Assembly (NCBI GenBank): GCA_934401915.1
Contig: CAKRSV010000006.1
Coordinates: forward strand, 124,001-188,000
Length of the DNA: 64,000 nucleotides
Direction of reading: 5' to 3'
Source of the DNA: an uncultured Lachnospiraceae bacterium
GTDB taxonomy: Bacteria > Bacillota > Clostridia > Lachnospirales > Lachnospiraceae
A program made the translations under genes and the position numbers. This document shows, one piece after another, positions 40,768-49,412 of this stretch (position 1 is the first letter of the stretch; the number at the start of each line of letters is the position of its first letter). The notes beneath the pieces were generated by a model that worked only from the letters and a program-made list of their open reading frames with translations, searched no databases and was not told the DNA's origin.

Positions 40768-41994
40768 CTACTCTACGACGATCTTTTTGAAACTCTTCTT
40801 GCCTTTCTTTATGACAAACTCTGCCGAGCCGATCTCATCCTTCGTATAGGTCTTTCTGACATCGGTCACCTTGTCTCCGTTGACCGATACGCCGCCCTGC
40901 TCTACGGCACGGCGCGCCTCGGAACGGGAAGCTGCCAGACCGGAAGCTGCCATGATCCCCAGAATGTCGATGCTTCCCTCCTGGAAATTCTCATCCTTTA
41001 AGACTGCGGTCGGCATATTTTCGCTGCTTCCGCCTCCGGCAAACAGAGCAACCGAAGCCTCTTTTGCCTTCTCTGCCTCCTCGTCGCCGTGAACCAGTTT
41101 TGTCAGCTCATATGCAAGGATATCCTTCGCCTGGTTGAGCTGGCTGCCCTCCCACTTGTCCATCTCGTCGATCTGCTCGATGGGAAGGAAGGTCAGCATA
41201 CGTAAGCACTTAAGAACATCGGCATCCCCGACATTTCTCCAGTACTGGTAGAACTCGAACGGAGAGGTCTTATTGGGATCCAGCCATACGGCGCCCTTCT
41301 GTGTCTTGCCCATCTTCTTGCCCTCGGAATTCATCAGCAGCGTGATGGTCATTGCGTAGGCGTCCTTGCCGAGCTTACGTCTGATCAGATCCGTACCGCC
41401 TAGCATGTTGCTCCACTGGTCGTCTCCACCGAACTGCATGTTGCAGCCGTATCTTTCGTAGAGCTGCAGGAAATCGTAACTCTGCATGATCATATAGTTG
41501 AACTCCAGAAAGCTCAGTCCCTTTTCCATTCTCTGCTTGTAGCACTCTGCCCGGAGCATATTGTTGACGCTGAAGCAGGCGCCGATGTCACGGATAAATT
41601 CAATATAATTGAGATCCAGAAGCCACTCTGCATTGTTGACCATCATGGCTTTTCCCTCGGAGAAATCGATGAAACGGCTCATCTGTTTCTTAAAGCACTC
41701 GCAGTTGTGCTCGATCGTCTCCTTTGTCATCATGGAACGCATATCTGTTCTGCCGGAGGGATCTCCGATCATTCCGGTTCCGCCGCCGATCAGTGCGATC
41801 GGCTTGTTTCCTGCCTCCTGCAGTCTTTTCATCAGGCACAGCGCCATAAAATGTCCTACGTGAAGGCTGTCCGCCGTCGGGTCAAACCCGATATAGAAAG
41901 TTGCCTTTCCGTGATTGATCAGCTCCCGGATCTCCTCCGCATCGGTAAGCTGTGCAAGAAGTCCTCTTGCCTGAAGTTCTTCATAAATTCCCAT
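40768..41994 (-). CDS. tyrS: Tyrosyl-tRNA synthetase
   Basis: A 408-residue class Ic synthetase that charges tRNA-Tyr. The HIGH-type motif is LHVGH near residue 44. The tyrosine pocket includes [22 protein letters not shown]. The KMSKS-type loop is GKKMGKTQ near 225. The C-terminal S4 RNA-binding domain (about 340-400) has [25 protein letters not shown] lies before the ATG. Expression is controlled by the T-box leader at 42049-42343 behind its own promoter. Confidence 0.97.
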
Positions 41995-42048: not shown

Positions 42049-42343
42049 TAAAAAAACCTCGTCCCATACATAGGACGAGGTTAAAACCCGTGTTACCACC
42101 TAACTTCACAGACGACTCACACCGCCTGTCTCACCAAGTACAATCCGCTGTAAAAGCTGTGCCGATAATACTCTCCTGCTATAACGTGCATTCCTCCGTC
42201 ATGACTTACTAGGTTTCCCATTCTGCCATGAAGCTCCGAGATGTATTCACAAAAGGATTCCCGTGCGCCTCTCATCATCCGGCAACTTTCTGTACGTTCC
42301 ACGATCTGCTACTTGTTCTCATCAACGCTTTCGCTTTATCTGT
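42049..42343 (-). promoter_or_regulatory. T-box riboswitch leader of tyrS (tyrosine-specific)
   Basis: On the minus strand the conserved T-box reads AAGTTAGGTGGTAACACGGG (42087-42106). An intrinsic terminator follows: AACCTCGTCC / GGACGAGGTT with an 8-base loop (42055-42082) and a T-run at 42049-42056. About 150 nt upstream, within a Stem I-like region, GAATACATC supplies a TAC tyrosine codon as probable specifier (42243-42245). Uncharged tRNA-Tyr should stabilise the antiterminator and turn on tyrS. The transcript start would be near 42344. Confidence 0.92.
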
Positions 42344-42350
42344 TGAAATC

Positions 42351-42379
42351 AATGTACCCGATATTTTCCGATTTGTCAA
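42351..42379 (-). promoter_or_regulatory. Promoter of the tyrS T-box transcript
   Basis: On the minus strand: TTGACA, 17-base spacer, TACATT. The -35 box overlaps the TGA stop of the upstream phosphorelay gene (42376-42378). Confidence 0.75.
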
Positions 42380-45126
42380 TCTATTTTTTCCATCATTTCT
42401 GCCAATACGGCTTTCACCTGATGGAAATCGAACATATCGTACGCTTCCTTCATCGCTTTTACCTGTCTGTTCCATTCCGCTCCGAAGTTCTTCGTCGCAA
42501 GTTCTGCCATCAATGTATCTGTGACTTTCAGATTCATCTTGTCGAGCTCTGTCTTCAGCACAAGAAGCTGTTCGCCGGTAAGCTCCTGCGCCTCCTGCTC
42601 TTCCAGATTGTCCTCCGTCTCTACCTTGCCGGCAAACTTGCCGTTGTGGATCAGATAGTCCTTCACAAGCTCCAGGATCTCACGGAATTTTGCAAGATAA
42701 CCTTCAAACTTCTGGTTGATCTCGTCGATCCGGTTATCTTTTCCTGCAAATTCCAACTCCTTAAAGAGCGCGGAAACCTCCATGGCCCCGATACTCGCGC
42801 TGGAACTCTTGATGCCGTGCACGTTGGTTGTAAAGAGCTGGATATTCCCCGCTTCCAGAAGCGCCGGAAGCTGCTCCAGATATTTCAGTCCCTCGGAATA
42901 GTAGGTGTTCAGGATCGCCGCGTAGGCATCCTGATTGAAGCCGATGTTAAGTAGTCCCTTGTCTGTATTCAGACCGCCTTCTATCTTTGTCTCCGGCGCA
43001 TCCGGCTTTTTGGTCTCTTTCTCCGTCACGACGCGCTCGATCATCTCTTCCGGCAGGAACGACAGCAGGCACTTCTCCAGATAGCGCCTCTTGATCGGCT
43101 TGGCAAGATACTCCTGGAAGCCGAGTGCGATCATTTCCTCCCTCACGCTGGCTCCGTTCTGGGCCGTCAGCGCAATGATCGGAACCTCCTGGAAATACTG
43201 ATCCTTCTTCTCCCGGATCAGCGAAAGGATCTCATCGCCGCGGTAGTCCGGCATGGCCATATCGAGCAGGATCAGATCGTATTTTTCATTCTCGATCTTC
43301 TTGAGCCCTTCCTGGCCGCTCGTCGCCACCGCGATATTGATCCCGTACTTTGCAAAGATCGCCGCTGCAACCTTTAGATTGACTACATTGTCATCCACGA
43401 CAAGCACTCTGGCGTTCTTCGCCTCAAAGGTTTCCGCCGTCGCGCTCTTCTTGTAATCTTCCAGCTTCCAGCGGTGGTTCAGTACCTCTGTGATCTCGAT
43501 CGCCGAGAACGGTCTTCTGAGGATCCTGCATTTGCCAAAGTCCCCGTAGATTGCGTTGTTTTGGGCGCTGACATAAGTATATTCCTCACACTGGTACAGC
43601 CTGATGATGTTTTCCACGCTCTCGTAGACATCGTCCGTGATAAAGATAAAATCAAAGCGCTGATCTCTGACCAGCCGGTCAAACCCGTAATAGTTCCTTC
43701 CAAAGACCGGACGGATTCCAAACCCTTCCATGAAGTTCTGCCATTTGGAAATTTTCTCTTCTCCTGTATAGATCAGAACCCTGGGCGGGATCTCATCCTC
43801 CAGTGAGAGCATCGGCGTTGCGTCGACCACCTCGTTGCAGAAGGTAAAACTGGTGCACAAGCCTACATCCTCAATACTTTTTACCTCAATCTCACCGCCC
43901 ATCATTCCCAAAAGCTCTTTGCAGATCGAATACTTCAGCGCAATACCCTTCAGATTGCTCGACTGTCTGGAATCATAGGTGCTGTACATACCGAACAGGG
44001 ACTGGATATCGATCTCGGAAAGCCCTCTTCCGGTGTCTGCGATCCGGCAGAAAAACTTCGCTGTCTGCGCCGCTTCGTCTCTTTCGCAACGGATCTCCAG
44101 CACGATACGCCCCGTCGTCGTACTGTCGATCGCGATAAACAGCAGATACAGGAAAATCTGACGGATCGCCACGCTGTCGCCGATCAGCGTTTTGGGGATA
44201 TCATGGTCAATGCGGATATCGAGAAGAAGATTCTTTTTCTGCAGCTCCTCCGACACCGACCGGACGATCATCTTCTGCAGCTTTTCAAAGCTGTACGCTT
44301 CCTTGATCAGGTGCATCTCCCCGGCATCGATCTTGGCGTAGGTCAGCACATCGTCGATGATAGAGAGCAGGTCGTACGACGCCTCACGGATTGTTCCCAC
44401 TTGTGTCTTTATCTCTCCGTCAAGCTGATCCTTCATCATGATCTCCGACAGGTTGATGATCGAATTCATCGGCGTCCGGATCTCATAGGACATATTGGCA
44501 AGGAACTGGCTCTTCGCATTGCCGGCACATTCGATCTTGCTGCTGCTCTTGACGATCTTTTTCTTCTGGTAGCTGTAAAATGCCTCCTGCGCATAGACCG
44601 GGATCAGCATAAAGACTGCCACTCCGATAAAGCTGGCCGCCATCTTCGGGAAATTCAAGTCGTTGCTGTGCGTGATGTTCATCTGAATACTGTGAAAAAA
44701 GTAATTGCTGTACAGATAGCTGTATTCAAAAATAAAGCACACCAGAACCGTCAGAAAATATACCCGCTCCAGCAACGCATAGATGATCGTCATGCTCACA
44801 GCCAGCCACAGGATCGCCACGCTGTACCCGAAGCAGCCGCGCAGCAGCATTGCCGGGATCAGCAGACCGTCAAAGACTGCGATCGTCAGTATGGTAAAAA
44901 GCGTACACTTCCGAAACCGGAAATTCAGAGAAAGGAGGGTGACCCCACAGATCAGCGCGATCACAAGGAATACTTCCCTCTCCCGGTTCTTACTTGAAAT
45001 AAGATCGACGATCAGCATCAGGAACGTTTCCGTTGCCATCATCGCCAGAAAAAGATTCAGGATAAACTCCGGGATCTGCATATCTCTCAGCAGTTCTTCA
45101 AAGGATGTTCTCAGTTTACGCATCAT
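42376..45126 (-). CDS. Hybrid histidine-kinase-like protein with Tyr in the H-box, receiver and HPt domains
   Basis: A 916-residue membrane protein. Six or so membrane helices (about 18-185) lead to a HisKA-like domain whose H-box reads NMSYEIRTPM. The phosphoacceptor His is Tyr214 (codon at 44485-44487). The ATPase domain lacks the N-box asparagines (IRQIFLYLLFIAID, 321-334) but keeps DTGRG (364-368). A receiver-like segment with no clear acceptor (about 449-550) comes before an intact receiver (about 573-690, LLDMAMP, D622). An HPt domain follows with VHGIKSSSASIG (H770). It probably relays phosphate instead of making phosphohistidine itself. AAGGAGG precedes the ATG, which lies 11 bp inside the neighbouring kinase gene. 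Confidence 0.88.
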   Translation of the reverse strand: MMRKLRTSFEELLRDMQIPEFILNLFLAMMATETFLMLIVDLISSKNREREVFLVIALICGVTLLSLNFRFRKCTLFTILTIAVFDGLLIPAMLLRGCFGYSVAILWLAVSMTIIYALLERVYFLTVLVCFIFEYSYLYSNYFFHSIQMNITHSNDLNFPKMAASFIGVAVFMLIPVYAQEAFYSYQKKKIVKSSSKIECAGNAKSQFLANMSYEIRTPMNSIINLSEIMMKDQLDGEIKTQVGTIREASYDLLSIIDDVLTYAKIDAGEMHLIKEAYSFEKLQKMIVRSVSEELQKKNLLLDIRIDHDIPKTLIGDSVAIRQIFLYLLFIAIDSTTTGRIVLEIRCERDEAAQTAKFFCRIADTGRGLSEIDIQSLFGMYSTYDSRQSSNLKGIALKYSICKELLGMMGGEIEVKSIEDVGLCTSFTFCNEVVDATPMLSLEDEIPPRVLIYTGEEKISKWQNFMEGFGIRPVFGRNYYGFDRLVRDQRFDFIFITDDVYESVENIIRLYQCEEYTYVSAQNNAIYGDFGKCRILRRPFSAIEITEVLNHRWKLEDYKKSATAETFEAKNARVLVVDDNVVNLKVAAAIFAKYGINIAVATSGQEGLKKIENEKYDLILLDMAMPDYRGDEILSLIREKKDQYFQEVPIIALTAQNGASVREEMIALGFQEYLAKPIKRRYLEKCLLSFLPEEMIERVVTEKETKKPDAPETKIEGGLNTDKGLLNIGFNQDAYAAILNTYYSEGLKYLEQLPALLEAGNIQLFTTNVHGIKSSSASIGAMEVSALFKELEFAGKDNRIDEINQKFEGYLAKFREILELVKDYLIHNGKFAGKVETEDNLEEQEAQELTGEQLLVLKTELDKMNLKVTDTLMAELATKNFGAEWNRQVKAMKEAYDMFDFHQVKAVLAEMMEKID

Positions 45127-47200
45127 GCTCTGCCTCCTTTCCGGACTTGAAAAGGATCTTTTCCTGGGGCAGATACTTCCTCAGCAGCTTTTCAAATTTA
45201 TCCAGCTCGATCGGCTTCGAAATATATTCATCAAAGCCTGCCTCCAGAAACATTTCCCGCGCGCCACTCACCGCATTTGCTGTCAGCGCGATCACCGGCA
45301 GCTCTTTCATCTCCTGCCGGTCCATTGCACGGATATTCTTCAGCGTGTCGATACCGTCCATCTCCGGCATCATATAATCCAAAAAGATCAGGTCAACCTT
45401 GTCATGCGCCAGGGTATTGAGACACTCTGCCCCGCTGGACGCCACCAGCACCTGCGCTTTGTAGCGGCTGAGTATGCCTCCTGCAACCTCCAGATTGATG
45501 AGATTGTCGTCCACCACCATGACTCTGGCGTCCGGACATTCAAAATTGCCATGATAGCCGACCTTGATGATCGCACTGTTCGACCGGTTTGCAAACAGGG
45601 CGTCCAGGCTGATGCAGTTGACTGGTCTGGAAAATGTCATCCGGATCAGATCGTCGTCATAGCTGAGCATATCCGGGCTGATGAGGATCAGACTCTGCGG
45701 CGGCATAAGCGCCGTCAGACGTTCCCGCAGTCCCTCGTAGCGCTCCGCCGCGATCATAATATAACGGTAATCCTTATTCGTACATTCATGCATAAACTCT
45801 TCGTCTGTGCTGACCATATGGAAAGAAACGCCCATCCACCGCAGGATCTCGCCCATAAAGTCTGCCTGCACCCTGTTGTTCTCAAAATACAGCACGTTCA
45901 TTCCAGGCTCGTATTTTCCTACGATCTTCTTCTCACTGCGGTATTCCTGTGAAACCGAAAACTCATATTTTCTTTGCCTGGGATTCTCTTCAATCGCGAG
46001 ATTTCCGTCAAGCACCTGGATGATTCGCTCCACCAGCGGCTCCTTGTTGTCCCTGGAGATCTCCCTTGCATAGATCAACTCTTTATAGGAGTGCTGGAAC
46101 GCTCCTTTTGCATGAATGACGGTACTTAACTGTATCGTGCCTTCTCCGTTCTTCCTGCCGTCGATGCAGAACACGACCGTTCCTTCCTGCATGCTTCTCA
46201 CGACGCCTGTCACAAGCCCCATCACGACCTGCTTGATCAGCGTCGGATCGCCCACCAGATCCTCCGGCAGCTCCGGATCGATATGCACAAAGAATTCGAT
46301 ACAGTTATCTGCGAGCCGCACCGACAGCATATTGATCATATCCTCCATAAAAAACCGTATGGAATAGTCGGACTTTTCCACCTTCATATTCTCATAGTCC
46401 AGTCTGGAAAAACTCATCAGATCGTTGGTGATAGAAAGAAGTGCCTTGCTGGAATTGTTGATGTGCATCGCGCTTTCTCTTACATTCTCTGCCGCATCGC
46501 TGTCGAGCAGCATCTCCGCGGTTCCCATAATCGCATTGAGCGGCGTACGGATCTCATGCGACACATTGACCAGAAACATATCCTTCGCATAGTTGACCTG
46601 CTCCGCCTGCTGTTCCATCTCCGTACAGTTCCGCATCTCCTTGCGCAGGATCTTGTTCCGGTACGTGATGAGGATCCCGCACACGGATCCGGTGATCACA
46701 AGCGACAGGATAATCCTTGCGTAGAGCGTCGCGTTATAGCTCTGGAATTCGTTAAAATCCGTATATGCACCGGTTGTCTGCGCTACCATGCGGTACAGGC
46801 AGAAGACATCCATCGCCAGCTCTGTCAGAATAAAGAGAATCGCCTGTCTTCCTTTGAACAGAACTGCCGCGATAATGATACCGGTAATGAAATAGAGGGA
46901 AAAATCATAGATCGCATTGGGCACAAGCTGGGAAAGAGCCGGAACAATGCCCAGATACACGATACCCATATAAATATTGGACAGCACCTCCCTGTGCCCG
47001 TACCGCTTTTCCAGGACGATCGCCGCCACTGTGAGCGCAGTGGCGGCAAGCAGAAGCACCGAAATGACTGCATCCATTCGTAGCAGCACCGAAAACATGA
47101 ACATCAGGATCAGTTCTCCCAGTCCCAGCACCATGGAGATCCGGAAAGACCGACATTCCACGCGCAGCTCGTCCGAAATATATTTTCTCAGCATACCCAT
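45116..47200 (-). CDS. Hybrid histidine-kinase-like protein with intact H-box, degenerate ATPase domain and receiver
   Basis: A 694-residue membrane protein with about six helices (20-180), then HisKA with a normal NVSHEIRTPLN (H215). The region where an ATP-binding domain should be (about 310-420) shows none of the usual boxes: the N-box position reads LIKQVVMGLVTGVV and no DxGxG or GLGL motif is visible. A receiver-like segment (about 433-545) and a canonical receiver (about 558-675, DLIFLDYMMPEMDG, D608) follow. It may need another kinase for phosphorylation, or act as a phosphatase or scaffold. It overlaps the next gene by 11 bp and follows the HD-GYP regulator by 86 bp. Confidence 0.88.
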   Translation of the reverse strand: MGMLRKYISDELRVECRSFRISMVLGLGELILMFMFSVLLRMDAVISVLLLAATALTVAAIVLEKRYGHREVLSNIYMGIVYLGIVPALSQLVPNAIYDFSLYFITGIIIAAVLFKGRQAILFILTELAMDVFCLYRMVAQTTGAYTDFNEFQSYNATLYARIILSLVITGSVCGILITYRNKILRKEMRNCTEMEQQAEQVNYAKDMFLVNVSHEIRTPLNAIMGTAEMLLDSDAAENVRESAMHINNSSKALLSITNDLMSFSRLDYENMKVEKSDYSIRFFMEDMINMLSVRLADNCIEFFVHIDPELPEDLVGDPTLIKQVVMGLVTGVVRSMQEGTVVFCIDGRKNGEGTIQLSTVIHAKGAFQHSYKELIYAREISRDNKEPLVERIIQVLDGNLAIEENPRQRKYEFSVSQEYRSEKKIVGKYEPGMNVLYFENNRVQADFMGEILRWMGVSFHMVSTDEEFMHECTNKDYRYIMIAAERYEGLRERLTALMPPQSLILISPDMLSYDDDLIRMTFSRPVNCISLDALFANRSNSAIIKVGYHGNFECPDARVMVVDDNLINLEVAGGILSRYKAQVLVASSGAECLNTLAHDKVDLIFLDYMMPEMDGIDTLKNIRAMDRQEMKELPVIALTANAVSGAREMFLEAGFDEYISKPIELDKFEKLLRKYLPQEKILFKSGKEAEHDA

Positions 47201-47286
47201 CTGACATTTCCCCTCACCTTCTCGTTCTTCAAGCCCCGGCTCTGCCCGTTCTTTCTCTTTCCCTGTCTCAGACAGGTTCCCCGTTC

Positions 47287-48351
47287 TTAGCCTGCGGCCT
47301 TCTCTATTTCGCTTTCCACGGCGAGGAAAATGTCTACGATCCCTGCGTCAAAGCTGGTAAACTTCATAAACTTGATCTTCCTGCACGCTTCCTGATGGCT
47401 GAGCACCTTGCCGCCCACGCTGATCGTCCGCAGATTGTCGTAGGTATTCACGATCGCAAGCGCTCTCGCCTCCACCGGGATGTTCTCTCCGGCAAGTTTC
47501 TCCGGATATCCGTTTCCATCCCATCTTTCATGGTGGCTCTTGCACATATTATAAGCGTAATTCATAAAGTTATTGCTGCCGGCGCTGAGCTGCGTCACCT
47601 TGGACAGAATGTCCGCTCCCAGCGTTGTGTGTGTTTTCACTGCCTCGCGCTCAAATTCGCTCTCGCTGCTGAACTTCGTCTTGTTCAGATACTGATCCGC
47701 GATGCAGAGCTTTCCGATGTCATGGATCTTGGATGCAAAACAGATTGTGATCCCATCATCCGCCGTCAGTCCGTATTTCCCGGAACGTACCATCTCGCTG
47801 ATCAGGATATCCATGTACTTTTCTACTCTTCTCGCGTGATCTCCGCAAAAAGCGTCTCTCTTGGAGAGCAGATCCACGAACATCTCCACGATGGAATACT
47901 GAAGCTCCAGATTCTTTTTATTCTTTTCCTGTACCAGGTTATTCAGGGACTTGTTAAGATCGGTGAGTTTATTCTGCTGTGCCAGAAGCTGGATCTGGAT
48001 ATCCACCCGCTTGCGCAGAAGATTTGCCGTGTATGGTTTGCGTATGTAATCCATAGCGCCCAGATTGTAGCTTTCCAGCTCCGTCGTATCGTCGTCCTGG
48101 GCAGTCAGAAAGATGATCGGTATATTCTCCAGCTTGGGAATATTCTTCATCTCCGAGATTACCTGAAATCCATTTACATTCGGCATATCGACGTCTAAAA
48201 GCACCAGATCCGGAAGCTCCGGCATATCGTTGAGACATTCCAGTGCGGAGATGCCGGACGATACCGGTATCACCTCATACTCTTCTTCCAGCGTCTTTCT
48301 TGCCATGATCAGATTCGCCATGTTGTCATCTACGATCATTACACGATACAT
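47287..48351 (-). CDS. Response regulator with HD-GYP domain
   Basis: A 354-residue cytoplasmic protein. The N-terminal receiver (about 1-120) has the phosphoacceptor D53 in LVLLDVDMPN and the KP pair in YIRKPY. A short coiled linker leads to an HD-GYP domain (about 150-350) with SKIHDIGK and SHHERWDGNGYP. HD-GYP proteins hydrolyse c-di-GMP. Here the early Glu expected before RD is Ser (LLSKRDAFCGDH), and the late Asp in the usual ADxxDA is Asn (IVNTYDNL), so metal binding and activity could be altered. AGGGGG precedes the ATG. It is the likely output of the two kinase-like proteins encoded directly downstream. Confidence 0.9.
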   Translation of the reverse strand: MYRVMIVDDNMANLIMARKTLEEEYEVIPVSSGISALECLNDMPELPDLVLLDVDMPNVNGFQVISEMKNIPKLENIPIIFLTAQDDDTTELESYNLGAMDYIRKPYTANLLRKRVDIQIQLLAQQNKLTDLNKSLNNLVQEKNKKNLELQYSIVEMFVDLLSKRDAFCGDHARRVEKYMDILISEMVRSGKYGLTADDGITICFASKIHDIGKLCIADQYLNKTKFSSESEFEREAVKTHTTLGADILSKVTQLSAGSNNFMNYAYNMCKSHHERWDGNGYPEKLAGENIPVEARALAIVNTYDNLRTISVGGKVLSHQEACRKIKFMKFTSFDAGIVDIFLAVESEIEKAAG

Positions 48352-48398: not shown

Positions 48399-49412
48399 TT
48401 ATTCTTCCCACGGAATCAGCGGATTTTCAATCTTTTTGTCTCTGAGCATCAGATTTCTGACCGCCTCATCTGCCGGTTTCCCCTCAAAAAGCACTGCGTT
48501 TACCTGTTCGATGATCGGAATCTGCACCTGATATTTCTTCGCCAGCTCCATAGCCGCCTTCGCCGAATACACACCCTCGACCACCATCTTTACCTCTGCC
48601 ATCGCTTCTTCCATGGAATAGCCCTTTCCGATCAGGATCCCGGCTCTGCGGTTTCTGGAGTGCATGGATGCGCAGGTCACGATCAGATCACCGATCCCGG
48701 TCAGACCGCTGAACGTCTCCGCCTTGCCGCCCATCGCTGTTCCAAGCCTGGCGATCTCCGCGATCCCTCTTGTGATCAGAGCTGCCTTCGTGTTGTCTCC
48801 ATATCCCAGCCCGTCGGCAATTCCCGCCGCAAGCGCAACCACGTTTTTCAGCGCTGCTCCCAGCTCAATCCCAAGTACATCCGGACTGATGTAGACGCGG
48901 AACACCTCATTCATAAAGATATTCTGAAGATACTCTGCCGTCTCTTTCTTTCTCGCTCCGACAACGATCGTCGTCGGGATCCCGCGGCCGACCTCCTCCG
49001 CATGGGACGGTCCGGACAAAACAGCCACCTCCGCCTGCGGGATCTCCTCCTCGATGATCTGGGAAAGCGTCAGCAGACTATGCTCCTCGATTCCCTTTGC
49101 CACATTGACGATGATCTGCCCCTCTTTTACAAACGGCGCCATGCTGTGCGACGTGCTTCTCGTATAAGGCGACGGAACTGCCAGCACCAGAACGTCCTTT
49201 CCTGTCAGCGCCTTTTCCAGATCCGTTGTGAACTCCATATCCTCCGGCAGCTTCACTCCCGGCAGTTTTTCCTTATGCTCATGCTCTCGCTGGAGCATTT
49301 CGATCTCATCCTTCATAATGGACCATACGGTCACCTTATGTCCGTTCTTGTAAAGCAGCAGTGCCAGAGCCGTTCCCCAGCTTCCTGCGCCGATCACACT
49401 GATAGTTGCCAT
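48399..49412 (-). CDS. gpsA: Glycerol-3-phosphate dehydrogenase [NAD(P)+]
   Basis: A 337-residue enzyme that reduces dihydroxyacetone phosphate to sn-glycerol 3-phosphate for phospholipid synthesis. The Rossmann motif is SVIGAGSWGTALA. The catalytic Lys lies in GAALKNVVALAAGIADGLGYGDN, and SGLTGIGDLIVTC is a family signature. AGGAGG lies 6 bases before the ATG. It follows plsY by 21 bp and der in one operon, so supply of the PlsY substrate and its acylation are encoded together. The HD-GYP regulator starts 47 bp downstream with no terminator visible between. Confidence 0.97.
   Translation of the reverse strand: MATISVIGAGSWGTALALLLYKNGHKVTVWSIMKDEIEMLQREHEHKEKLPGVKLPEDMEFTTDLEKALTGKDVLVLAVPSPYTRSTSHSMAPFVKEGQIIVNVAKGIEEHSLLTLSQIIEEEIPQAEVAVLSGPSHAEEVGRGIPTTIVVGARKKETAEYLQNIFMNEVFRVYISPDVLGIELGAALKNVVALAAGIADGLGYGDNTKAALITRGIAEIARLGTAMGGKAETFSGLTGIGDLIVTCASMHSRNRRAGILIGKGYSMEEAMAEVKMVVEGVYSAKAAMELAKKYQVQIPIIEQVNAVLFEGKPADEAVRNLMLRDKKIENPLIPWEE

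What the first reader, a model, noticed from the sequence alone, without database searches (positions are those of the whole stretch)
42376..48351. Three-gene phosphorelay with two unusual hybrid histidine kinases and an HD-GYP output
The 694-aa protein keeps the H-box (SHEIRTP, H215), but its ATP-binding region shows no N-box or DxGxG motif. The overlapping 916-aa gene has Tyr214 in place of the phosphoacceptor His (SYEIRTP) and lost N-box asparagines, yet keeps DTGRG, an intact receiver (D622) and an HPt His (H770). Neither looks able to autophosphorylate by the standard route. They may form a hetero-assembly or a receiver-HPt relay, perhaps fed by an outside kinase, that controls the HD-GYP regulator encoded first. 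The 11-bp gene overlap and adjacent HD-GYP gene suggest a dedicated system. The missing motifs are seen in the sequence; the circuit is inference.
Basis: partly seen in the sequence, partly recalled or inferred. Interest (0 to 1): 0.75.

Follow-up and report, generated by a model that had tools for sequence, protein, structure and literature searches.

The report
Two half-broken sensor kinases sharing work
In a group of gut bacteria, two neighbouring sensor kinases have each lost a different half of the kinase machinery yet are kept together, probably as one shared device that controls an enzyme for the signalling molecule cyclic di-GMP.

Summary
A (694 aa) keeps phospho-acceptor His215 but its ATP-binding domain has lost its motifs. 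B (916 aa) has Tyr214 for His and no N-box Asn, but keeps DTGRG, receiver D622 and HPt H770. R has intact HD-GYP motifs.

It is not a strain quirk. A's His is 102 of 102 in close relatives; B lacks the His in 83 of 88 rows that cover it. R precedes A in 24 of 24 close loci with upstream DNA held. In sister lineages A is complete and B still has its His.

Over 90 A-B pairs, B's His is missing in 0 of 29 with intact A and in 55 of 61 with damaged A (a stricter rule gives two exceptions). The tree puts about seven losses, all on damaged-A branches. B's ATP-binding domain stays under strong purifying selection; A's is relaxed.

Best reading: an obligate A-B hetero-kinase whose parts were divided in order (A's ATP site, then B's His), feeding B's HPt and R. 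The phosphate donor for A's His is untested. New variant of a split kinase/phosphorelay.

The parts
47287..48351 (-). R: response regulator, receiver plus HD-GYP (354 aa), first gene of the unit
   Evidence: directly upstream of A in 24 of 24 close loci with upstream held, window included
48193..48195 (-). R phospho-acceptor Asp53 (LLDVDMP)
   Evidence: LLDVDMP or LLDIDMP in 35 of 36 R rows; the 36th (L129) is a partial ORF that does not cover it
47302..47904 (-). R HD-GYP domain; H210-D211 and G281-Y282-P283 present
   Evidence: HD 36/36, G 36/36, Y 33/36 (F 3), P 36/36
45116..47200 (-). A: hybrid kinase-like protein (694 aa), TM-DHp-degenerate CA-pseudoreceiver-receiver
   Evidence: the pseudoreceiver is read from the model's secondary structure and the ShkA match
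46556..46558 (-). A phospho-acceptor His215 (SHEIRTP)
   Evidence: 102 of 102 close relatives, 19 of 19 in the next group
45911..46378 (-). A degenerate CA domain (residues 275-430): no N-box Asn, no DxGxG, no G2 box; predicted fold kept
   Evidence: dN/dS 0.11-0.38 in 8 measurable of 9 in-group pairs against 0.02-0.06 in 5 measurable of 6 pairs with intact A
45176..45529 (-). A receiver with Asp608 (FLDYMMP)
   Evidence: D608 in 120 of 121 rows, one gap
42376..45126 (-). B: hybrid kinase-like protein (916 aa), TM-DHp(Tyr)-CA-pseudoreceiver-receiver-HPt
44485..44487 (-). B Tyr214 in place of the phospho-acceptor His
   Evidence: Tyr 76, His 5, Asp 4, Phe 1, Gln 1, Asn 1, gap 1 of 89
44119..44160 (-). 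B degenerate N-box (323-336): the Asn places are Y327 and I331; position 334 is acidic in 88 of 89
43822..44304 (-). B CA domain (275-435) with D364TGRG and a G2-like box (K393-G394-I-A-L in the window) kept
43057..43413 (-). B receiver with Asp622
   Evidence: 89/89
42667..42924 (-). B HPt domain with His770 (VHGIKSSS)
   Evidence: 89/89; Pfam Hpt 1.1e-5
42055..42334 (-). T-box leader and terminator of the downstream tyrS gene: the likely downstream limit of the unit
   Evidence: RF00230 at 42068-42334, 103 bits; terminator-like site 42082-42055

Best explanation
R-A-B encodes one dedicated phosphorelay of a Lachnospiraceae lineage. A and B work together as an obligate hetero-kinase in which the parts of a kinase have been divided. 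A supplies the phospho-accepting DHp (His215) and a receiver (D608). B supplies the only remaining nucleotide-site-like CA domain, a receiver (D622) and the HPt (H770). In the ancestral form A was a complete kinase that also phosphorylated B's His inside the A-B complex. In the window's line B's N-box degraded first, then A's ATP site broke, and B's His, left without a donor, was replaced (Tyr in the window). The phosphoryl group is proposed to run A-His215 to a receiver (D608 or D622) to B-HPt H770 to R-Asp53, setting the c-di-GMP phosphodiesterase activity of R. SHOWN by sequence: the motif states, their conservation, co-inheritance, order of loss, and the differing selection on the two CA domains. 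INFERRED: physical A-B complex, trans-phosphorylation, B's CA as donor for A-His215, the relay order, and the enzyme activity of R.
For: Dependence of B's His on A's ATP site: 90 A-B pairs give 29 (A intact, B His), 55 (A lesioned, B not His), 6 (A lesioned, B His) and 0 (A intact, B not His). Seven losses of B's His all map to lesioned branches, which make up 25% of at-risk branch length, P = 6e-5. With a stricter lesion rule it is 6 of 7, P = 7e-4, with two exceptions from one clade. On the 50-locus tree A's ATP-site state needs four changes, at least three forced by well-supported branches. The A and B halves of a joint tree show the same main groups. A's His215 is 102/102 although A has no ATP site, and A's DHp has dN/dS at most 0.07 in 8 measurable of 9 in-group pairs. 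A's CA is relaxed (0.11-0.38), while B's CA stays at 0.02-0.09, close to the receivers. B's CA keeps DxGxG and a G2-like box in the 89 close rows and is modelled as a CA fold. In L023-L025, a separate lineage, B has lost its His but keeps Asn331 and D364xGxG, while A keeps its His with a damaged CA (in L023 and L024 A's second N-box Asn, last G1 Gly and G2 are changed, in L025 only the first N-box Asn and G2). HPt and R are both missing in L138-L142; of those five genomes four have no R match at E <= 1e-35 and the fifth (G478) only a 143-bit paralogue. Precedent for a two-protein kinase: CheA3/CheA4 (PMC3591291, passages read).
Against: B's CA in the window's lineage lacks the N-box Asn (I331), recalled as the residue that holds Mg2+; such domains are usually dead, so B may not be a kinase at all. 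B lacks that Asn in the 32 outer rows too, including species where A is complete, so B's CA was under constraint for some reason other than replacing A. The rule that counts P0279 and P0280 as damaged was set after seeing them. The tool's own paired sign tests are not significant (p = 0.5, 0.125; too few pairs), and the branch-length test assumes losses scale with branch length. The dN/dS pairs share species and many have dS above 1. No complex was modelled or measured. R is absent from some A-B loci that keep an HPt motif (L023-L026, L037, L039), and in L023-L025 B's receiver Asp is Asn, so the relay is not the same everywhere. G083 lacks the HPt motif yet has an unlinked R-like protein. Phosphate could also be supplied by an outside kinase.
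Confidence: 0.45

Rival explanations
1. Relay without an in-house kinase: A's DHp is a phosphotransferase or phosphatase (Spo0B- or MaeK-like), B's CA is only a structural or ligand-sensing domain, and phosphate enters from another hybrid kinase of the cell, or from acetyl phosphate, through the receivers.
For: A keeps His and the E-x-x-T phosphatase pattern (HEIRT, 102/102) while its CA is gone. MaeK of L. casei is a studied protein with that combination and no nucleotide binding (PMC5457438, passages read). B lacks the N-box Asn. Other kinase-like genes exist in the same genomes (80 and 64 loose first-look candidates in G001 and G003).
Against: Does not explain why B's CA stays as constrained as a receiver with D364, G366, G368, K393 and G394 at 89/89, nor why in L023-L025 B keeps Asn331 after losing its His.
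Confidence: 0.33
2. Allosteric pseudokinase pair (DivL- or RetS-like): neither protein is phosphorylated from ATP; the DHp/CA parts bind receivers or each other and switch R by protein contact, perhaps with c-di-GMP or a nucleotide as ligand.
For: Tyr at the phospho-acceptor place is the DivL state (PMC4211667, passages read). Fold matches of both models include RetS, GacS and ShkA. ShkA has the same DHp-CA-pseudoreceiver-receiver order and is switched by c-di-GMP (PMC7010744, passages read).
Against: A's His, both receiver Asps, B's HPt His and R's Asp are conserved in the close set, which a purely allosteric device would not need. B214 is not fixed as Tyr (Asp, Gln, Asn, Phe, His occur), so a special Tyr role is unlikely.
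Confidence: 0.15
3. Slow decay: the kinase pair is losing function and the defects are relaxed drift.
For: A's CA evolves several times faster, relative to silent change, than in complete relatives. One relative (L145/G041) does look decayed: A in two ORFs, no HPt motif, no R match.
Against: A and B are open frames of similar length in the in-group loci that hold them whole (L011 and L018 are cut by contig ends). A-CA dN/dS is still well below 1, the other domains measured are strongly constrained, and the key residues are invariant in the close set.
Confidence: 0.05

Closest known systems
CheA3/CheA4 split histidine kinase (Rhodobacter sphaeroides), PMC3591291
   Same: Kinase parts divided between two proteins: one with the phospho-His and no catalytic domain, one with a catalytic domain and no His.
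   Different: CheA type with P1 domains, not HisKA hybrid kinases; CheA4's catalytic domain uses ATP, B's lacks the N-box Asn; no HPt or HD-GYP output (recalled); here the split appears to have arisen stepwise from a complete kinase and more than once.
DivL pseudokinase (Caulobacter), PMC4211667
   Same: Tyr where the phospho-acceptor His should be, in a network with a hybrid kinase (CckA).
   Different: DivL keeps N, G1, F and G2 boxes; B has no N-box Asn, carries its own receiver and HPt, has no PAS hit in Pfam, and Tyr is not strictly conserved.
RcsC/RcsD/RcsB relay
   Same: A kinase-like protein that has lost kinase function carries the HPt and sits between a hybrid kinase and the regulator (the RcsD model scores 86 bits with B).
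   Different: In Rcs the partner RcsC is a full kinase; here the partner A has also lost its ATP site; output is HD-GYP, not DNA binding (Rcs details recalled apart from one passage of PMC3762810).
RetS/GacS kinase pair (Pseudomonas)
   Same: Two hybrid kinases that interact (passages of PMC5992135 and PMC12189002); among the fold matches of both models; co-structure 7n0e of RetS and the GacS DHp listed.
   Different: RetS inhibits a working GacS; here neither partner is complete and both are in one operon.
MaeK (Lactobacillus casei), PMC5457438
   Same: Sensor with conserved His and degenerate CA that no longer binds nucleotide, like A.
   Different: A single sensor of the citrate family; no kinase-like partner gene of B's kind is described in the passages read.
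ShkA hybrid kinase (Caulobacter), PMC7010744
   Different: ShkA is a complete kinase; c-di-GMP binding by the A or B pseudoreceiver was not tested.

Membership tests
Autophosphorylating HisKA hybrid histidine kinase | Phospho-acceptor His in the H-box | tested here: met
   A: 102/102. B fails: His in 5 of 89.
Autophosphorylating HisKA hybrid histidine kinase | Complete CA with N-box Asn, DxGxG, G2 box | tested here: not met
   A of the window has none of the three; B has DTGRG and a G2-like box but no N-box Asn.
Split histidine kinase (CheA3/CheA4-like) | One partner with phospho-His and no catalytic CA, the other with CA and no phospho-His | tested here: inconclusive
   His side met (A). CA side only partly met in the window's lineage (N-box Asn missing); better met in L023-L025, where B keeps Asn331.
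Split histidine kinase (CheA3/CheA4-like) | ATP-dependent phosphorylation only when both proteins are mixed | not testable with these tools
   needs in vitro phosphorylation
DivL-type pseudokinase | Tyr conserved at the His position | tested here: inconclusive
   Tyr in 76 of 89 close relatives, otherwise His, Asp, Phe, Gln, Asn or gap.
DivL-type pseudokinase | All other kinase boxes kept | tested here: not met
   Asn331 absent in 89 of 89 close rows (I79, V10).
Multistep His-Asp-His-Asp phosphorelay | DHp His, receiver Asp, HPt His and regulator Asp all present | tested here: met
   A H215 and D608, B D622 and H770, R D53.
Multistep His-Asp-His-Asp phosphorelay | Phosphotransfer along these residues | not testable with these tools
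   needs in vitro phosphotransfer
HD-GYP response regulator (c-di-GMP phosphodiesterase class) | Receiver followed by HD domain with HD and GYP motifs | tested here: met
   Pfam PF00072 and PF13487; HD 36/36, GYP exact in 33/36, GFP in 3.
HD-GYP response regulator (c-di-GMP phosphodiesterase class) | c-di-GMP hydrolysis | not testable with these tools
   needs an enzyme assay

The most novel reading that the evidence does not exclude
Two hybrid kinases have become one obligate two-gene kinase by repeated, ordered, reciprocal loss (B's N-box, then A's ATP site, then B's His), and B's CA, although it lacks the canonical Mg2+-binding Asn, still phosphorylates A-His215 in trans. It would do so with an unconventional pocket; the acidic residue at 334 (88 of 89), one helical turn from the lost Asn, and invariant K393 are candidates. 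This would be a working histidine-kinase active site without an N-box.
Probability: 0.22. Interest if true: 0.82.

Novelty: new variant of a known kind. Interest (0 to 1): 0.6.

Why it matters
Split and pseudo-kinases are known as single cases. Here a living series of relatives shows the intermediate stages, with at least three separate losses of one partner's ATP site, and the other partner's His missing only where that site is damaged (two exceptions under a stricter rule). That makes the question 'how does a kinase become two interdependent halves?' directly testable with natural proteins from each stage. It also supplies a CA domain under strong selection without an N-box Asn, which tests whether that residue is truly indispensable.

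Tried and rejected
Strain-specific defect or frameshift: rejected. Tyr214 as a specific phospho-Tyr site: disfavoured, because Asp, Gln, Asn, Phe and His also occur. Acidic residue at 334 as a compensating gain after A's loss: not supported as a gain, since it also occurs in deeper lineages with intact A (L029, L030, L039, L052, L165). B's CA 'taking over' as shown by rising conservation: not shown; identity rose from 0.57 to 0.71 but so did B's receiver (0.67 to 0.79). Paired sign tests on the trees are underpowered (3 pairs, median p 0.5; 5 pairs, p 0.125). VIA-align for A listed receiver matches only, so it says nothing on A's CA; Foldseek gave HK-core matches. Own-genome search impossible. 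Promoter scan uninformative: 10 sites against 6.8 +/- 2.8 expected. Literature: no paper describing this operon was found in the searches 'Lachnospiraceae + HD-GYP + hybrid histidine kinase' (0 papers), at least three of 'MoxR, VWA, HD-GYP, hybrid histidine kinase' (1 paper, on jumbo phages, seen as listing only), 'pseudo-histidine kinase' (5 papers) and 'hybrid histidine kinase + heterodimer + catalytically inactive + conserved histidine' (0). The library is open-access PMC only. Hik36-Hik43 (PMC7656254) was seen only as one abstract passage.

Rows dropped: one search used 50 of 54 loci (L002 and L028 lack B, L136 and L145 lack A). In one search, saturated pairs gave no ratio. L002, L018 and L027 (no B, partial, N-containing) were left out of the identities, and L011 (partial B) was left out of its B rows. 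Searches list only the best 120 hits each (of 466, 2010 and 243). P0228, counted with the outer group, is a fragment that looks like a member of the close group. The close and outer groups were cut by rank in the hit lists. For the structure models 73 rows each were aligned out of the 121 available per protein.


Full report
WHAT IS THERE. Three minus-strand genes lie between gpsA (48399-49412) and the T-box-led tyrS (40768-41994): R, A, B. R is a receiver plus HD-GYP protein. A is TM-DHp-CA-pseudoreceiver-receiver. B is the same plus an HPt and a C-terminal helical tail. A also has an intact receiver Asp (D608).

CONSERVATION. In 102 A rows (window plus P0001-P0101) His215 is 102/102 and the N-box Asn column is mostly Gly or Glu; the printed in-group rows have no DxGxG or G2 box. 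In 89 B rows position 214 is Tyr76, His5, Asp4, Phe1, Gln1, Asn1, one gap; D364, G366, G368, K393, G394, D622 and H770 are 89/89. The next relatives differ. Of 19 outer A rows, 19 keep the His and the second N-box Asn, and of the 6 printed in full 5 have DxGxG and a G2 box; P0120 does not. Of 32 outer B rows 25 have the His, and none has Asn331.

NEIGHBOURHOOD. In the close group (25 loci with the window) R lies directly before A in 24 of 24 with upstream DNA held, and B directly behind A in 24 of 24 with downstream DNA held (L018 and L002 are the ones cut). MoxR and VWA genes precede R in 23 of 23 (window and L018 apart). The usual wider order is der-plsY-gpsA-metF-MoxR-VWA-R-A-B-tyrS. The window itself has no MoxR or VWA match anywhere in its 64 kb. 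In sister lineages R-A-B occurs with a complete A (L127-L129, L131-L135, L143, L144). In five genomes (L138-L142) both R and B's HPt are missing while MoxR-VWA-A-B remain; four of the five have no R match at E <= 1e-35, the fifth a 143-bit paralogue. Against a simple HPt-R rule: L023-L026, L037 and L039 have an HPt motif but no adjacent R. Genomes G002, G004 and G056, home of such loci, do have an unlinked R-like protein of 244-256 bits, but so does G083 (236 bits), whose B (L165) has no HPt motif. In L026, L030, L039, L052 and L165 a small receiver-like ORF stands in R's place (read by eye, Pfam not run). The system is patchy: 7 of 397 genomes in an even draw from the family of G001, 24 of 77 in that genus, 16 of 18 in the genus of G210.

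ORDER OF LOSS. On a tree of 50 loci built without A's CA and without the H-boxes, A's ATP-site state needs four changes, at least three of them forced by well-supported branches. B's His is present in 21 of 21 loci with intact A. Read as irreversible losses on this (quick) tree there are six A-site losses and seven B-His losses, and the seven all fall on lesioned branches (25% of at-risk length, P = 6e-5). The rule counts a single G2 change as a lesion, and two rows of one clade (P0279, P0280) depend on it. With at least two changes required, two exceptions appear and 6 of 7 losses fall on lesioned branches (P = 7e-4). The tool's paired sign tests do not reach significance. The six lesioned/His pairs (L011, L013, L137, P0085/P0203, P0096/P0206, P0100/P0207) look like the intermediate stage: A's site gone, B's His not yet. 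The simplest reading is that B's His was phosphorylated by A's ATP site, that is, A and B work in one complex.

SELECTION. Between related species A's CA has dN/dS 0.11-0.38 (8 measurable pairs of 9), against 0.02-0.06 where A is complete (5 measurable of 6). B's CA in the same in-group pairs has 0.02-0.09 (9 pairs), and A's DHp 0.00-0.07 (8 measurable). Pairs share species and many have dS above 1, so the figures are rough. A's ATP domain is thus relaxed but still a protein-coding fold; A's His domain and B's CA are under strong constraint. R's receiver has 97% mean identity over 231 in-group pairs against 78% for its HD-GYP part.

ORIGIN. In a tree of DHp plus receiver, A rows and B rows each form one side of a well-supported branch, with the same main groups inside (the place of the window beside L013 differs). 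One genome (L164) has, directly behind gpsA, a single complete kinase with receiver and an HPt-like motif, placed next to A (Pfam does not call the HPt). This fits, but does not prove, a tandem duplication followed by division of labour.

MECHANISM AND DOUBT. Shown: motif states, conservation, co-inheritance, order of loss, selection. Inferred: the complex, trans-phosphorylation, and the relay A-His215 to a receiver to H770 to R-D53. The weak link is the donor for A-His215. B's CA is the only candidate in the operon, but it lacks the N-box Asn in the window's lineage. In the separate L023-L025 lineage B keeps Asn331 and DxGxG after losing its His, beside an A with His and a damaged CA (L023 and L024 more than L025), which is the cleanest split; there B's receiver Asp is Asn, so the receiver step would have to be A's. 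MaeK shows that a His-bearing, ATP-dead sensor can be functional without an ATP site of its own, so the outside-donor rival stays close.

NOVELTY. Split kinases (CheA3/CheA4), Tyr pseudokinases (DivL) and HPt-bearing pseudokinases (RcsD) are known. A two-gene hybrid system in which both partners have lost complementary parts, repeatedly and in order, was not found in the searches named in Tried and rejected. I rate it a new variant of a known kind.

Noticed in passing
window 42068-42334 (-): T-box leader (RF00230, 103 bits) with a terminator-like site in front of tyrS; it marks the likely downstream border of the unit.
   Followed up: partly
L001:4777-6858 and equivalents; no match in the window: A MoxR-type AAA ATPase and a VWA (CoxE-like) gene precede R in 23 of 23 close loci with upstream held (window apart) and also stand before A where R is lost (L138-L142). 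The window has no match to either in its 64 kb.
   Followed up: partly
L026, L030, L039, L052, L165, just upstream of A: A small receiver-like ORF (129-190 aa, judged by eye) takes R's place in the deepest clade.
   Followed up: partly
L164:2407-5148 (-): A single complete hybrid kinase with HPt-like motif directly behind gpsA, with no second kinase in the stretch: a possible picture of the ancestor.
   Followed up: partly
window 47992-48351 (-), and 22 in-group R proteins with the window: R's receiver is 97% identical on average over 231 pairs, more than any other domain measured in the three proteins.
   Followed up: no
L145 (G041): Decaying relative: A split into two ORFs, B without HPt motif, no R and no MoxR-VWA in the stretch.
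   Followed up: no
L031-L036, L040, L044, L077, L078, L166, L167: Other pairs of adjacent hybrid kinases, with an R-like gene in the stretch held in all but L167, show N and G1 boxes by pattern in both members; the H-box pattern used found nothing in these pairs, which was not looked into.
   Followed up: no
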